Positions 35,314 to 58,495 of a stretch of DNA of 64,000 nt are shown in pieces. Each line of letters opens with the position of its first letter. Within the stretch, counting starts at the first letter, position 1. A program made the translations under genes and the position numbers. A model generated the notes under the pieces. The model was not told the origin of the DNA and searched no databases. It saw only the letters and a program-made list of their open reading frames with translations. The DNA is taken from positions 1 to 64,000 of the IMG/VR virus record IMGVR_UViG_3300031718_000006; one strand, written 5' to 3'. Source of the stretch: a virus.

Positions 35314-35398
35314 TGGCGGAGAGTGAAGGAATCGAACCCTCATCCTTGCGGGAGCGGCGGTTTTCAAGACCGTTTGCCAACCTTTGGCCGCACTCTCC
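35314..35398 (-). tRNA. tRNA-Ser (anticodon TGA)
   Basis: 85 bases, acceptor GGAGAGT pairs with ACTCTCC, followed by encoded GCCA. Anticodon loop CTTGAAA (anticodon TGA, reads UCA/UCG-type serine codons), long variable arm as expected for serine, T-loop TTCGATT. Last of four tRNAs in the cluster. Confidence 0.93.
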
Positions 35399-35404
35399 GA
35401 AATC

Positions 35405-35480
35405 TGGTCGGGATGGCAGGAGTTGAACCTGCGTGGACATGTTCCCAAGACATGTGGGTGGCCGCTACCCTACATCCCGA
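35405..35480 (-). tRNA. tRNA-Pro (anticodon TGG)
   Basis: 76 bases; acceptor TCGGGAT pairs with ATCCCGA, CCA encoded. Anticodon loop CTTGGGA in a six-pair stem ACATGT. T-loop TTCAACT. Confidence 0.93.
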
Positions 35481-35483
35481 CTC

Positions 35484-35559
35484 TGGTGGACACAGAGAGA
35501 ATCGAACTCTCAACTCTCGGGTGCAAACCGAGCGTTTTCCCGTTAGAACTACGCGCCCA
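35484..35559 (-). tRNA. tRNA-Ala (anticodon TGC)
   Basis: 76 bases; acceptor TGGGCGC pairs with GTGTCCA (two G-U), CCA encoded. Anticodon loop TTTGCAC in stem CTCGG/CCGAG. T-loop TTCGATT. The usual alanine G3-U70 pair cannot be assumed; the acceptor has G-U pairs at other places. Confidence 0.88.
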
Positions 35560-35564
35560 AAACT

Positions 35565-35640
35565 TGGAGCCAGCGGAGATAATCGAAACCCCACGCGTCC
35601 GCTTACAGGGCGGTTGCTCTTCCACTTGAGCTACGCTGGC
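35565..35640 (-). tRNA. tRNA-Thr (anticodon TGT) with unusual C33
   Basis: 76 bases; acceptor GCCAGCG pairs perfectly with CGCTGGC, then TCCA. Anticodon arm ACCGC-CCTGTAA-GCGGA: the position before the anticodon is C where nearly all tRNAs have U33. Shifting the loop to read Tyr (GTA) breaks the stem, so Thr is preferred. T-stem has two G-U pairs. Confidence 0.82.
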
Positions 35641-51967: not shown

Positions 51968-52324
51968 TTACAAGCCGCGTCCGTTAAGCGCGATCCCAGC
52001 ATTCGCCCACATCACCGCCGCACGCACGAAGCTGAGAGCCGTCCGTTTGTCATCTCCCCACGGTGCATGACGGTCGATTACCCGAGCGAACGTTTTGGCT
52101 GCTTCGCGGATTTCCACATAGTGTGGAATTGCCGCAGGGTCATTGTGGTAGGTGAAAACGTCGTCAATCGGGTCGCGCGGATTGAGTATGTTATCTCCCG
52201 GCATCGCTGTTTGGATTGGCGCGTAGGCTTTCTCTTGGCACGCTTGACCCACTCCGCCCCTCAGTTGATCCGCCTCATAATCGAGAGCGGATATTTGCTT
52301 TTCTATTTGCTGCAAACGGCTCAT
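51968..52324 (-). CDS. Acb2-like anti-CBASS cyclic nucleotide sponge
   Basis: 118 aa from ATG 52324 (AAAGGGGAAC). After a coiled N-terminal part (LQQIEKQISALDYEADQLRG) comes the family block: DDVFTYHNDPAAIPHYVEIR, AAKTFARVIDRHAPWGDDKR, AAVMWANAGIALNG. The FTYH...YxxIRxxAKxxAxxI...AVMxANAxIA pattern is that of Acb2/Vs.4 (DUF7681-type) proteins, which bind the cyclic oligonucleotides made by CBASS defence. The Tyr in FTYH and the Lys of AAK correspond to ligand-binding positions as I recall. The N-terminal extension is about 45 residues. Confidence 0.7.
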   Translation of the reverse strand: MSRLQQIEKQISALDYEADQLRGGVGQACQEKAYAPIQTAMPGDNILNPRDPIDDVFTYHNDPAAIPHYVEIREAAKTFARVIDRHAPWGDDKRTALSFVRAAVMWANAGIALNGRGL

Positions 52325-52335
52325 TTGTTCCCCTT

Positions 52336-52542
52336 TCAATTTGGCTCTGACTTTGAAATAAACTCCCGCATCATGTTGCACACATCCTGACGTTGGCAGT
52401 TCGCCGTGTAAAACATGCTCCCCGCTTCCCCAAACTCCGCGATCAGCAATGCGAATCCAAAACCATCCGGCATCGTTTCGCGTAAGCGGTCGCCAATATC
52501 CTTCAGCCTTTTCTCCACTTCAGGATTGCGAACTTCAAACAT
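52336..52542 (-). CDS. Small phage protein (68 aa)
   Basis: MFEVRNPEVEKRLKDIGDRL, a helix followed by strands FGFALLIAEFGEAGSMFYTA and NCQRQDVCNMMREFI. This pattern (F-x-LLxxEFG...FYxAN..R..) is common in small phage proteins near Acb2-like genes. The ATG overlaps the previous stop. Function unknown. Confidence 0.6.
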   Translation of the reverse strand: MFEVRNPEVEKRLKDIGDRLRETMPDGFGFALLIAEFGEAGSMFYTANCQRQDVCNMMREFISKSEPN

Positions 52543-53095
52543 TGATTGCGTCCTTTCCGCCTGGAGTAGCTTCTGGCTTCGGCTTTTCAGCCCACATCAA
52601 CCTGTAGCCTTCAAGCATGACCGGATTGAAATCGTCCTTATCGGTAATGTCCCAAAGCTCCCCATTCTTCATGCGGAAGATGACTTTAACCCCTTGCAGC
52701 ATGGTATGGAGATTTTTGACCCACTGCTCAAGGTTTATCGGGTAAGGGATAATATCGAGTTTCTGCGGGTCGCGGCCTGCATTTCTGGCAATCGAAGGCA
52801 CGTTGAAAACCAACCGTTGCAGCCATGCTTCCATCCTGCGGTTGGCAAAATACCTGCGGTAGTTCTCATAATCCCACGCGCTCAGAACCTCAGCCGCGTC
52901 GAACTTGCTCCCTAGCCGGATGTTCTGCTCAAACAGTTCGGGCACAGGGATCATCAGGTTGGTCAGGATTCCATTGTCCAGACTCTTTAGGTTGATGCGG
53001 ATGTAGGTCTTAAATTCTCCCCGCACGATTACCACGTCGATGATCTGCCCGAAATGCGCTTCCGGATTATGCTCCGGCTTAGGCTTGATGAACAT
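52535..53095 (-). CDS. Hypothetical protein (186 aa)
   Basis: MFIKPKPEHNPEAHFGQIID, strands (VVIVRGEFKTYIRINLKSLD) and helical middle (YENYRRYFANRRMEAWLQRL), end rich in Pro/Lys. Start overlaps the previous stop (TGATG). No family recognised. Confidence 0.55.
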   Translation of the reverse strand: MFIKPKPEHNPEAHFGQIIDVVIVRGEFKTYIRINLKSLDNGILTNLMIPVPELFEQNIRLGSKFDAAEVLSAWDYENYRRYFANRRMEAWLQRLVFNVPSIARNAGRDPQKLDIIPYPINLEQWVKNLHTMLQGVKVIFRMKNGELWDITDKDDFNPVMLEGYRLMWAEKPKPEATPGGKDAINV

Positions 53096-53463
53096 CAAAT
53101 CCCCCGACTCGCATCTTTGAACCCTGTGGCTTTACAAAGCTGGCACCCGTAGATTGTGCAGGTCTTGAAACGGTGGGCGGCCCCCACGCTCGGAGCGTTC
53201 ACAACTTCTCGAACCTCATAGCATTCAGGCACTCTGAACTCTCTTTTGGTCTCCGCCGCCTCCGCGATCTGCTCAATCGTTACCGGCTCGTCCGGCTCCT
53301 CGACCTGCTTTTTCTCCCACACCCGATCCCAAACCGCCGCCCGCAACGCCAAGGAAACAAACTCCTTCTGACTCAACTTCTCCGCCGCACACTTCTTCTG
53401 CACCAAATGCAATAGCTTCGGCGTCACCACTACGTTAATGTTCGGCCCCTTGTGTTTTGCCAA
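53095..53463 (-). CDS. RHH-like protein with Cys/His tail (122 aa)
   Basis: TTG start with GGAGGGAG in front. N-terminal MAKHKGPNINVVVTPKLLHL, QKKCAAEKLSQKEFVSLALR looks like a ribbon-helix-helix; then acidic middle and C-terminal CTIYGCQLCK that may bind zinc. Could be a repressor of its own operon, which starts about 400 bases upstream. No firm family. Confidence 0.5.
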   Translation of the reverse strand: MAKHKGPNINVVVTPKLLHLVQKKCAAEKLSQKEFVSLALRAAVWDRVWEKKQVEEPDEPVTIEQIAEAAETKREFRVPECYEVREVVNAPSVGAAHRFKTCTIYGCQLCKATGFKDASRGI

Positions 53464-54080: not shown

Positions 54081-54473
54081 CTATAGCCAGCCCTTTAGTC
54101 TGCGGTCAGTGCGAGTGAAAGCTAGATTGCAGTCATTGCAGCCCCAGCCATCTTTGTGTCGGACTAGGATGTGCTCCTGGCAAGCTGGACATAATGGTCC
54201 GCCTGGTTCGGGATCGTTCGCCGGATCGATTGGAGTTTCCCGGTCGGAGTCTAAATCAATTCCTGCTGCGATGCGTTCAAGCTTCTCCCGAATTTCTCCC
54301 GCCGAAGGTTCTGGTAGTTTTGGCTGAGCTGCCGGCTTGTTAACTTTGCCGGAGTTCCATTGCCGGCTTCTACATCCTCTTTTGGGACAAGACTCCGGTT
54401 CCTCTGGAGTTCGCTGAATCCATCGCCAGCCGCATTGGTCACACTCGTTAACTTCGCATTGAATCTTCGTCAT
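54081..54473 (-). CDS. Double zinc-ribbon protein (130 aa)
   Basis: ATG 54473 touches the first of four palindromes. Zinc site 1: CDQCGWRWIQRTPEEPESCP plus RGC; site 2: CPACQEHI and CNDCNLAF. The middle is Pro/Glu rich. Two ribbons and the operator repeats at its start make it a candidate for an autoregulated DNA-binding or replication-initiation factor, though no HTH is visible. Confidence 0.6.
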   Translation of the reverse strand: MTKIQCEVNECDQCGWRWIQRTPEEPESCPKRGCRSRQWNSGKVNKPAAQPKLPEPSAGEIREKLERIAAGIDLDSDRETPIDPANDPEPGGPLCPACQEHILVRHKDGWGCNDCNLAFTRTDRRLKGWL

Positions 54474-54555
54474 GTGTGCAGTGTACACAGACAGCGTGTG
54501 CAGAGTACACAGGATTCGTGTACCGAGTACACATAAAGATGTGTGCAGAGTACAC
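54474..54555. repeat. Four phased 15-bp palindromes
   Basis: 54474-54488, 54496-54510, 54518-54532 and 54541-54555. Consensus GTGTRC-NNN-GTACAC; copy 3 (GTGTAC CGA GTACAC) is a perfect palindrome, the others differ by one base. Starts are 22, 22 and 23 bp apart, about two helical turns. It directly abuts the ATG at 54473. Either multimeric operators or replication iterons. Confidence 0.8.
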
Positions 54556-54834
54556 ACTTGGTCCTAACGGTACCACTTGGCCGCCATGCAACTCGCTCCG
54601 TTCACGCCCAACCATCCGCCAGTTTTCGGCCGCTTACAGCAAGCTTTCAGGCGATTGAAACAGGGCGATGCTATTTAGATTCAACGTTTTGCGTTTAGTG
54701 AGTTAGATTTCAGGCTTGAACTGACTGTAAATCGAGAGTCTGAATTGAAGGGAAAAGCCTTTTGAAGCTGAGAATCTAGTGATTGCTGATAACAAAGGGT
54801 TTTGAGTCTATAAAAGCTTAGTGACCTGCAAGGG
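54556..54834. other. AT-rich gap without a clear gene
   Basis: Between the palindromes and a terminator. A 30-codon plus-strand frame (MQLAPFTPNHPPVFGRLQQA) at about 54586 has no ribosome site. The right half is AT-rich with several AAAA/TTTT tracts, which would suit a DNA-unwinding element if the palindromes are iterons. Confidence 0.4.
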
Positions 54835-54866
54835 AAAGAAAAGCCCTACGATGTTCTGTAGGGCTT
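54835..54866 (-). terminator. Rho-independent terminator
   Basis: Minus strand AAGCCCTAC/GTAGGGCTT (nine pairs, loop of eight) followed by TTTCTTTC. It ends the unit of the metalloprotease-like gene and its two followers. Confidence 0.8.
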
Positions 54867-55066: not shown

Positions 55067-55302
55067 TAGTCGCCCCCTAGAGAAGATGGGAACAACCGAT
55101 CAGCGCAAACGTCACAGAACAATTCTGTAAACTTGTACGCTATTGCAACCATACCTAACCGTCCTTCATGCCAAACAACGATTAAGCAGATAATCGCTAG
55201 CAATACCGCGATGTGGACCACTACCCGATGACGTTTGACCGCTTTCGCGATTGGCTGAACTATGGGAATAACCTTGGGAGCAAGCTTTGCGGTAATGTTC
55301 AT
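55066..55302 (-). CDS. Membrane protein (78 aa)
   Basis: MNITAKLAPKVIPIVQPIAK, basic stretch AVKRHR, then a span VHIAVLLAIICLIVV; C-terminus with CDVC and SSLGGD. The last codons (CTA GGG GGC GAC TAA) hold a GGGGG run suitable for slippage. ATG overlaps the HEXXH gene (ATGA). Unknown role. Confidence 0.6.
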   Translation of the reverse strand: MNITAKLAPKVIPIVQPIAKAVKRHRVVVHIAVLLAIICLIVVWHEGRLGMVAIAYKFTELFCDVCADRLFPSSLGGD

Positions 55303-56264
55303 CGGAGAACCTCCACGAAAGATTGCAGTTCAGCCCATCCTGTAATCGCAGCAATGACCGCGATAACCATCAATTCGACCGTGAGCCGCAAGCCCGCACG
55401 TCTGATTAGCAATGGTTCCTCCGGTTCGTCGGTATCTTCGTCCGGTTCAGGTAATGCCCAGCAATAACCTCCGTCATCTTCCCAGCGGTTCAGGTCTTTT
55501 TCTGAAGGTTCGCAGAAAAGCCGCGAAATCGCTTCGCTGTAACCTAGCTGATCTTTGATTGGCAGTAGTTCGCCGTAAAGCTCATCCGTAGTCATAGTCC
55601 AGCAATGGGAAGGCCCAGAGCCTAAACCGTGGAACTGCTGTACACTCGCTTGCTCCCACAGGGACAATTCCGTCCAAGGTCTAGTCTGGCATGGCTGAAG
55701 ACCTAACAGGAGTGCATACCAACCGCGTTCCCTGATCGTTAGGCCGTCCCACCATTCGCCACTTGTGGGAGGTTCTGCTTTGTACAAACGCGCCCAATGA
55801 TGTTCAAGTGTCGGTACCGGAGGAAGTAACCCAGCAAGCGGAGATTCGCCTAACATGTAACCTTTCAGGGCTGAATCCCTGATTTTCTTGTCCAAGTCTG
55901 GGTTAACCTTTTCAGCCAAGTACCATGCGTCTTGCTCTGCTGGTAGCCTTACTCCAGCTTGCGCTAAAAGTGGGTTATGGCTGGGAATCCTGAACAATCG
56001 GCAAAGATAGTGCCCAATTTCATGAGCAACTATCGTTAGGCCGTCATTGATAGTCATCGTATGCCCCAGAATCTTCGAATCCACATCGGGAGCTAGGATA
56101 ATGCGGTTTTCCCCTTGGAAATTGTCGGTACGGCTAGGCATTGTCCCGCCGGTAGTGTCCAGATAAAAACTAACTTCTCCGATTTTCTTCATTTTACTGC
56201 TAGGTACTGGGTTCTCCGCATCATGCTTTGAGACTTCTACCGATACCGCTTTAACTTTTGACAT
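55299..56264 (-). CDS. Membrane-anchored HEXXH zinc-metalloprotease-like protein
   Basis: 321 aa. TIVAHEIGHYLCRLF near residue 80 is an HEXXH zinc motif; about 35 residues later EQDAWYLAEKV provides an E-x-x-A-type third ligand, as in ImmA/IrrE-type peptidases. The C-terminus is LTVELMVIAVIAAITGW, a transmembrane anchor, after an acidic DEDTDEPEEP stretch. AAAGG precedes the start. Cleavage target unknown. It could cut host membrane or regulatory proteins, or a phage repressor. Confidence 0.65.
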   Translation of the reverse strand: MSKVKAVSVEVSKHDAENPVPSSKMKKIGEVSFYLDTTGGTMPSRTDNFQGENRIILAPDVDSKILGHTMTINDGLTIVAHEIGHYLCRLFRIPSHNPLLAQAGVRLPAEQDAWYLAEKVNPDLDKKIRDSALKGYMLGESPLAGLLPPVPTLEHHWARLYKAEPPTSGEWWDGLTIRERGWYALLLGLQPCQTRPWTELSLWEQASVQQFHGLGSGPSHCWTMTTDELYGELLPIKDQLGYSEAISRLFCEPSEKDLNRWEDDGGYCWALPEPDEDTDEPEEPLLIRRAGLRLTVELMVIAVIAAITGWAELQSFVEVLR

Positions 56265-57934: not shown

Positions 57935-57948
57935 AAGGACGGGAAAAC

Positions 57949-58200
57949 ATGAAACAAGAACAGACATTAGGCCGCGCTATTGCCACCTTACGTGCAAGCA
58001 AAGGTATTAGACAGCAAGACTTGGCTAAAAAGATCGGCGCTGGGGCTTCGCATATCTCACTCATTGAAGCGGGGAAACGTGAGCCATCTTTGGCGCTATT
58101 GCGGAAACTCGCTCATGCACTTGAAACCCCATTGGATGAACTCTTGGGACTATCCCAAAAGCTTGCCAGTGGGCAAAGAATCACAAATGGCAGGCATTAA
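57949..58200 (+). CDS. XRE-type HTH regulator (83 aa)
   Basis: ATG 57949, AAAGGACGGG before it. LGRAIATLRASKGIRQQDLA, KKIGAGASHISLIEAGKREP, LALLRKLAHALETPLDELLG: a complete Cro/CI-type HTH. A longer frame to 57847 overlaps the previous gene and is wrong. Probably the repressor of this rightward cluster. Confidence 0.85.
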   Translation: MKQEQTLGRAIATLRASKGIRQQDLAKKIGAGASHISLIEAGKREPSLALLRKLAHALETPLDELLGLSQKLASGQRITNGRH

Positions 58201-58252: not shown

Positions 58253-58495
58253 ATGAAACTCAGGGGAGAATTACGTTCAAATCCGACCATGCGCGAGATT
58301 CAGGTTATCGCCTTGGTTGCGCTGGGGTTTGAGAGCGTTGGAATCGCACAGCGGTTAGGCATCACCCTCAAAACCGTGGAAACTCACCGCACTAACGTCT
58401 ACCGCCGCATGAACTTTAAATCAGTTGTCGATATTGCCCATTGGGCGCTGGCAAAAGGAATCGTTGAAAACAAGTACCAGGGAGGCCTACTGTGA
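58253..58495 (+). CDS. LuxR/GerE-type HTH protein (80 aa)
   Basis: LRSNPTMREIQVIALVALGF, ESVGIAQRLGITLKTVETHR, TNVYRRMNFKSVVDIAHWAL. This is a stand-alone LuxR DNA-binding domain with no sensor part. GGGAGG precedes the ATG. A GAGTCGCACAGC leader copy stands 28 bases upstream. Confidence 0.85.
   Translation: MKLRGELRSNPTMREIQVIALVALGFESVGIAQRLGITLKTVETHRTNVYRRMNFKSVVDIAHWALAKGIVENKYQGGLL

What the first reader, a model, noticed from the sequence alone, without database searches (positions are those of the whole stretch)
54474..54555. Four palindromic sites at 22-22-23 bp spacing
GTGTRC-NNN-GTACAC occurs four times with two-turn phasing, next to a gene for a double zinc-ribbon protein. Beyond it lies an AT-rich, gene-poor stretch. 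The 22-bp spacing is typical for iterons of replication origins, while the palindromic sites are typical for dimeric repressors. It could be either the phage origin or a strong cooperative operator.
Basis: partly seen in the sequence, partly recalled or inferred. Interest (0 to 1): 0.75.

Follow-up and report, generated by a model that had tools for sequence, protein, structure and literature searches.

The report
Phage zinc-ribbon gene with palindromic operators
The four repeated palindromes are almost certainly the on/off switch sitting on the promoter of a small phage zinc-binding protein, which probably shuts off its own gene by binding them; they are not a replication origin, and the same switch recurs, with its DNA code changing, in many uncultured phages.

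Summary
Four 15-bp dyads GTGTRC-NNN-GTACAC (54474, 54496, 54518, 54541; spacing 22, 22, 23) occur nowhere else in the 67.5-kb virus record. The origin reading is not supported. Site 1 abuts the ATG (54473, minus strand) of the double zinc-ribbon gene and contains a -10 box (TACACT) with T at -12, the layout of leaderless promoters. A terminator at 54841-54866 separates the gene from upstream genes.

Homologous zinc-ribbon genes from uncultured phages, found by protein profile, carry a dyad at exactly -15..-1 in 18 of 21 distinct cases. A TANNNT box is inside nearly every one, and a second copy 19-23 bp upstream is common. The dyad changes symmetrically between subfamilies: GTGTAC/GTACAC, GGGTAC/GTACCC, GAGTAC/GTACTC, and once GTGTAT/ATACAC. 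The zinc-ribbon gene is the only gene found in common in the six phage records compared. No TetR gene was found in the records scanned, although bacterial tandem copies of this dyad sit beside TetR genes in 20 of 25 loci.

Best reading: a cooperative operator over a leaderless promoter, probably bound by the zinc-ribbon protein itself (autorepression). The binder is inferred, not shown. A host TetR-type repressor is the main rival.

The parts
54474..54488 (-). Operator site 1 (gene strand GTGTAC-ACT-GCACAC), positions -15..-1 of the zinc-ribbon gene; contains the -10 box
54480..54485 (-). Predicted -10 box TACACT, first T at -12 from ATG (leaderless layout TANNNT-N6-ATG)
   Evidence: sequence; homologues carry TACAAT, TATAAT, TACGAT, TACCAT or TATGAT at the same place; spacing as in PMC3160421
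54496..54510 (-). Operator site 2, 22 bp upstream of site 1
54518..54532 (-). Operator site 3 (perfect dyad GTGTAC-TCG-GTACAC on the gene strand)
54541..54555 (-). Operator site 4, 23 bp from site 3
54081..54473 (-). Zinc-ribbon gene, 130 aa; ribbon 1 ECDQCGWRW..ESCPKRGCRSRQW (residues 10-39), ribbon 2 CPAC..CNDC (residues 95-115). The longer mechanical ORF (GTG at 54557) only reads through the operators
54841..54866 (-). Terminator-like hairpin followed by T-rich tail, upstream of the operators; would insulate the zinc-ribbon promoter from minus-strand genes at 55-56 kb

Best explanation
The array is the promoter-operator of the zinc-ribbon gene 54081-54473. A leaderless sigma-70-type promoter has its -10 box inside the ATG-proximal palindrome. 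Dimers of a sequence-specific protein bind the palindromes on one face of the helix (about two turns apart), cooperatively, and exclude RNA polymerase. The most likely protein is the zinc-ribbon protein itself, giving negative autoregulation: expressed when its level is low, shut off when it accumulates. Four sites would make this switch tighter than in relatives with one or two. Shown: the sites, their uniqueness, the -10 and ATG layout, their recurrence at homologous genes, and symmetric change of the half-sites. Inferred: that the promoter is active and leaderless, that the binder is the zinc-ribbon protein, that binding represses, and that it is cooperative.
For: (1) Site 1 occupies exactly -15..-1 of the ATG, with TACACT at -12..-7. 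(2) A protein-profile search gave 41 viral loci. With the window and L053 added there are 23 distinct site/ribbon combinations, of which 20 have a dyad of at least 4/6 pairs at exactly -15..-1; among the 21 from the protein search alone it is 18. Control: among 1691 other ORF starts in the same set of loci, 57 have at least 4 pairs and 14 have at least 5. (3) 13 of 14 distinct proximal sites have TANNNT at -12, against 1.8% of other starts. (4) Half-sites change on both arms together: GTGTAC/GTACAC; (T/G)GGTAC/GTACCC; GAGTAC/GTACTC; GTGTAT/ATACAC. Shuffling right arms among sites: 74 of 84 paired against 66.4 (sd 2.0), p 3.5e-4, not corrected for relatedness. (5) 14 of 20 have a second, weaker copy 19-23 bp upstream. 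(6) In the records scanned, the exact dyad occurs only at this gene. (7) Among G000, G001, G300, G301, G309 and G310 the zinc-ribbon gene is the only gene all share by BLASTP; G301, G309 and G310 are close kin, yet their operator shifts from GTG to GAG. (8) No TetR_N gene over the cut-off in any record scanned; an XRE repressor over the cut-off only in G000 among seven scanned.
Against: No binding or expression data. No member of the family has a known function or a significant match in Pfam, NCBIfam, PHROGs or PDB. A repressor whose only site in a phage is its own promoter is unusual unless the protein has another job. The same dyad is a TetR-type operator in bacteria. Three family members lack the dyad at the start codon: L098 has GGGTAC-AAA-GTACCC about 200 bp upstream; L123 and L124 have none. 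Several of the profile's seed sequences were first found through the site, so the GTGTAC class is partly circular; the GGG and GAG classes are not. Several compared records are fragments.
Confidence: 0.6

Rival explanations
1. The array is an operator on the same leaderless promoter, but the binder is a host-encoded TetR-family (or other) dimeric regulator whose site the phage has copied, tying the phage gene to a host signal.
For: A scan of 84,980 bacterial and archaeal genomes for tandem copies gave 25 loci, mostly Actinobacteria plus two Rhizobiales; 20 of 25 have a TetR gene adjacent. TetR_N + TetR_C_33 genes in L015, L016 and L033 have the same dyad directly abutting their ATG, and the Rhizobiales copies share the GTGTGC variant. 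The phages compared carry no TetR, and the exact dyad is single-locus in each.
Against: Needs hosts with three different operator specificities but an identical layout. Related phages G301, G309 and G310 differ in operator class although they share most genes. The layout is exceedingly rare in bacteria outside such loci: 1 of 296 genomes in one phylum, the one that was already known.
Confidence: 0.25
2. The zinc-ribbon protein or another phage protein binds the sites as a transcription activator (like P2 Ogr), the upstream copies substituting for the missing -35 box.
For: No TTGACA-like hexamer stands 16-18 bp before TACACT; upstream copies sit at two-turn steps.
Against: The proximal dyad, the one always present, overlaps the -10 box and the probable transcription start, which fits occlusion better. 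Leaderless -10-only promoters exist without a -35 (PMC12340547). Relatives with one site have no upstream site (L053, L116).
Confidence: 0.09
3. The palindromes act as RNA hairpins in a transcript that runs through them, controlling translation or termination of the zinc-ribbon gene.
For: Each site could form a 6-bp stem with a 3-base loop; one relative shows a compensated change (L106 GTGTAT/ATACAC); the terminator scan also lists the hairpin at 54541-54557.
Against: In three of four window sites the gene strand has an A.C mismatch at pair 5/11. A terminator separates the gene from upstream transcription. A leaderless transcript would not contain the hairpins.
Confidence: 0.04
4. The array is a set of replication iterons (phage origin), or a packaging (pac) site.
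For: 22-bp spacing and a moderately AT-rich 300-bp stretch beside it. In G001 the gene lies between the small and large terminase genes.
Against: No initiator recognised among the neighbours; the skew change at 54.5 kb does not persist; copy number varies from 1 to 4 while the exact start-codon registration is kept; in the window the gene is 11 kb from the terminase.
Confidence: 0.02

Closest known systems
TetR-family autoregulated genes (TetR_N + TetR_C_33, e.g. L015, L016, L033)
   Same: Same 15-bp dyad GTGTRC-NNN-GTACAC, tandem at about two helical turns, abutting the ATG.
   Different: The phage gene encodes a zinc ribbon, not TetR; no TetR in the phage; the phage has four sites.
P2 Ogr / P4 Delta and Mu Com: small phage zinc-finger regulators (from own knowledge, not tested here)
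   Same: Small phage-encoded Cys4-type zinc proteins of about 60-80 aa that control gene expression at short symmetric or structured sites.
   Different: Ogr and Delta activate late promoters from upstream sites and Com acts on mRNA; here the sites overlap the gene's own -10 box. No significant sequence match to any named family.
Leaderless genes with a TANNNT box about 12 bp before the start codon (PMC3160421, PMC12340547)
   Same: The -10 position matches exactly (T at -12), with no Shine-Dalgarno sequence.
   Different: Here the box is embedded in a palindrome that changes symmetrically between relatives.
Lambda-type OR/OL operator clusters (from own knowledge)
   Same: Several phased palindromes for a dimeric regulator over a promoter.
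   Different: One gene, one direction, no divergent switch at the sites; the window's XRE gene at 57943-58200 is elsewhere and lacks these sites.

Membership tests
Autoregulatory promoter-operator (general kind) | Palindromic sites overlap the core promoter of the gene | tested here: met
   Site 1 contains TACACT at -12 and abuts the ATG
Autoregulatory promoter-operator (general kind) | Arrangement conserved at homologous genes beyond chance | tested here: met
   18 of 21 distinct homologues found by protein search; 57 of 1691 control starts
Autoregulatory promoter-operator (general kind) | The gene product binds the sites | not testable with these tools
   Only indirect: zinc ribbon is the sole shared gene; half-sites shift between subfamilies
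TetR-regulated operon | TetR_N gene encoded in the element | tested here: not met
   none over the cut-off in any record scanned; control genomes positive
TetR-regulated operon | Operator sequence of the same class | tested here: met
Iteron-type replication origin | Initiator gene adjacent | tested here: not met
   No initiator among the flanking proteins scanned; these phages are divergent, so a novel initiator could be missed
Iteron-type replication origin | Lasting GC-skew inflection at the site | tested here: not met
   cumulative skew flattens at 54-59 kb and then falls again
Leaderless gene | TANNNT about 12 bp upstream and no Shine-Dalgarno sequence | tested here: met
Ogr/Delta (phage zinc-finger activator) | Sequence membership in the family | tested here: not met
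   no Pfam, PHROGs or NCBIfam match to it

The most novel reading that the evidence does not exclude
A previously undescribed family of phage zinc-ribbon DNA-binding regulators, found so far only in uncultured phages, whose dyad specificity evolves together with the protein (GTG, GGG, GAG classes) and which sits on leaderless promoters. In several lineages the gene also carries a tRNA gene nested in frame inside its coding sequence, so that one transcript would serve as both mRNA and tRNA precursor.
Probability: 0.45. Interest if true: 0.7.

Novelty: new variant of a known kind. Interest (0 to 1): 0.52.

Why it matters
If the zinc ribbon is the binder, this is a minimal regulator (as small as 63-66 aa in L090 and L053) with a natural set of matched protein/operator pairs in three specificity classes, which makes zinc-ribbon DNA recognition directly testable. 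It also gives a DNA signature that locates an unnamed gene family in uncultured phages, and a well-supported example of a regulated leaderless phage promoter.

Tried and rejected
Origin and pac site: see rivals. Collagen-like repeat proteins gave 4 of 5 hits in the first viral scan (27-bp period coding repeats) and were discarded. Nucleotide similarity of the array to 50,697 phage records: none. Zinc-ribbon protein against phage records: none; against plasmids: none. Close relatives of the neighbouring genes 55299-56264 and 52535-53098: none. AlphaFold models: whole protein pLDDT 65, pTM 0.28; first ribbon pLDDT 76, pTM 0.50; Foldseek best E 0.48 to MCM zinc fingers and rubrerythrin, uninformative. 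Paper searches for the TetR motif and for zinc-ribbon phage autoregulators: nothing relevant. The host of the phage could not be identified; the terminase is distantly related to Arthrobacter phage terminases (22-24% identity), which is too weak to name a host. The window's XRE protein as the binder was considered: no XRE over the cut-off in the six other records, though several are fragments.

Full report
Observation. The four dyads are at the stated coordinates with 22, 22 and 23 bp spacing. They are the only exact copies in the 67,493-bp virus record that contains the window. Resampling gives 0.013 such sites per 64 kb and no close pairs. Site 3 is a perfect 6+6 dyad; sites 1, 2 and 4 read GTGTGC on one arm.

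Anatomy. On the minus strand site 1 ends directly at the ATG (54473) of a 130-aa protein with two Cys4 zinc ribbons. The mechanical ORF extends back to 54557 only because the repeats happen to be open in that frame; the homologues align from the ATG. The site contains TACACT with its first T at -12. Bacterial leaderless genes carry TANNNT at about 12 bp before the start codon (PMC3160421), and -10-only leaderless promoters without a -35 are established in Deinococcus (PMC12340547). There is no Shine-Dalgarno sequence. A terminator-like hairpin at 54866-54841 lies between the upstream minus-strand genes and the array, so the gene would need its own promoter.

Relatives. A scan of viral contigs for tandem dyads gave one true second case, L009. 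It has two sites 20 bp apart, the proximal one abutting the ATG of a homologous zinc-ribbon gene (31% identity over the alignment, BLASTP E 1e-9). Scanning for GTGTACNNTGTACACATG gave 22 stretches, of which most are followed by this gene family; many are near-duplicates. In the other direction, a profile of the first ribbon alone found 41 loci. After removing duplicates and adding the window and L053 there are 23 distinct site/ribbon combinations, and 20 carry a dyad at exactly -15..-1. Of 1691 other ORF starts in the same set of loci, 57 have 4 or more of 6 pairs and 14 have 5 or more; three of those 14 are the same GTGTAC-type motif. The profile was seeded partly with sequences first found through the site (L009, L053, L059), so the GTG class is partly circular; the GGG and GAG classes were found by protein only.

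Symmetric change. Proximal sites fall into GTGTAC/GTACAC (window, L084 which is the same gene as L059, L053, L104, L105, L116; with GCACAC in the window and L100), TGGTAC/GTACCC with GGG in the distal copies (L085, L086, L088, L097, L110), GAGTAC/GTACTC (L103; L090, L111 and L122 with one mismatch), and GTGTAT/ATACAC (L106). Pair 2/14 is T-A in 8, A-T in 4 and G-C in 1 of 14 distinct sites. Exchanging right arms at random lowers pairing from 74 to 66.4 of 84 (p 3.5e-4, not corrected for relatedness). The embedded -10 box is TANNNT in 13 of 14. A second, weaker copy stands 19-23 bp upstream in 14 of 20; L096 and L111 have three copies and the window has four.

Which protein binds. The zinc ribbon is the only gene common by BLASTP to G000, G001, G300, G301, G309 and G310. 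G301, G309 and G310 are kin (93-131 ORFs with matches) yet differ in operator class. XRE is over the cut-off only in G000 among seven records scanned, and TetR is absent from the records scanned. The exact dyad occurs once per record, or twice in L009's, always at this gene in the zinc-ribbon phages. This favours the zinc-ribbon protein as its own regulator, but no binding is shown and the protein matches no named family.

The TetR rival. In 84,980 bacterial and archaeal genomes the tandem dyad gives 25 loci, 20 with an adjacent TetR gene. TetR_C_33-type genes in L015, L016 and L033 have the dyad directly at the start codon. So the same DNA code is used by TetR proteins, and a host TetR acting on the phage cannot be excluded. 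Convergence is plausible, because GTG-TACNNT-GTACAC-ATG is a natural way to build a palindrome around a leaderless -10 box (inference).

Origin. No initiator was recognised among the flanking proteins scanned; the skew change near 54.5 kb is local; the number of sites is variable while registration to the ATG is fixed. I reject the origin reading, with the caveat that these phages are so divergent that most replication genes were not recognised.

Nested tRNA (side finding). In one branch the coding sequence continues through a tRNA gene on the same strand (Met, Thr, Arg, Trp and an unusual four-base anticodon loop), always starting at codon phase 0 after CRSRKW(D/N)(S/N/G) in the cases read. 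The tail after the tRNA is conserved in frame despite different tRNA lengths, and it shows coding-type substitutions (codon positions 1/2/3: 71, 38, 195, summed over pairs of 8 distinct tails). The window gene has no tRNA there.

Noticed in passing
L092:1501-1779, L097, L099, L104-L108, L112, L116 (relatives of the window gene): tRNA genes (Trp, Thr, Arg, Met, one with a four-base anticodon loop) lie in frame inside the zinc-ribbon coding sequence on the same strand; the protein tail beyond shows codon-type conservation.
   Followed up: partly
window 51968-52381 (-): 137-aa protein with an Acb2/Tad1 hairpin domain (Pfam PF24729, 39.5 bits, cut-off 27), possibly an anti-CBASS/anti-Thoeris sponge relative.
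   Followed up: no
window 29080-30771 (-) and 31247-32584 (-): Phage-encoded GroEL-like chaperonin and a protein of the PHROG 'RNA-binding protein' family 850.
   Followed up: no
window 57943-58200 (+) and 58253-58495 (+): XRE-type repressor and a GerE/LuxR-type HTH protein, side by side on the plus strand; hint of a lysogeny or early control region.
   Followed up: no
window 35314-35640 (-): Cluster of four tRNA genes: Ser(tga), Pro(tgg), Ala(tgc), Thr(tgt).
   Followed up: no
L082:2645-2662 (+) and L081, start of the large terminase gene: Two other phage genes with GTGTACNNTGTACAC directly at the ATG: a HAD-like 170-aa protein with TTGACA-N17-TACAAT, and a large terminase.
   Followed up: partly
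L079 (record G300): Ribbon-helix-helix-like gene MSVTKQSDPKVRIPRKLYDELV.. with GTATAC-ACT-GCATAC abutting its ATG: a similar leaderless operator for another likely DNA-binding protein.
   Followed up: no
L014, L018, L021, L026, L027, L036: In Micromonosporaceae the tandem dyad lies between a TetR_C_1 regulator and a zinc-type alcohol dehydrogenase (MKAIVQDRYG..), and overlaps a TTGACA-N17 promoter.
   Followed up: partly
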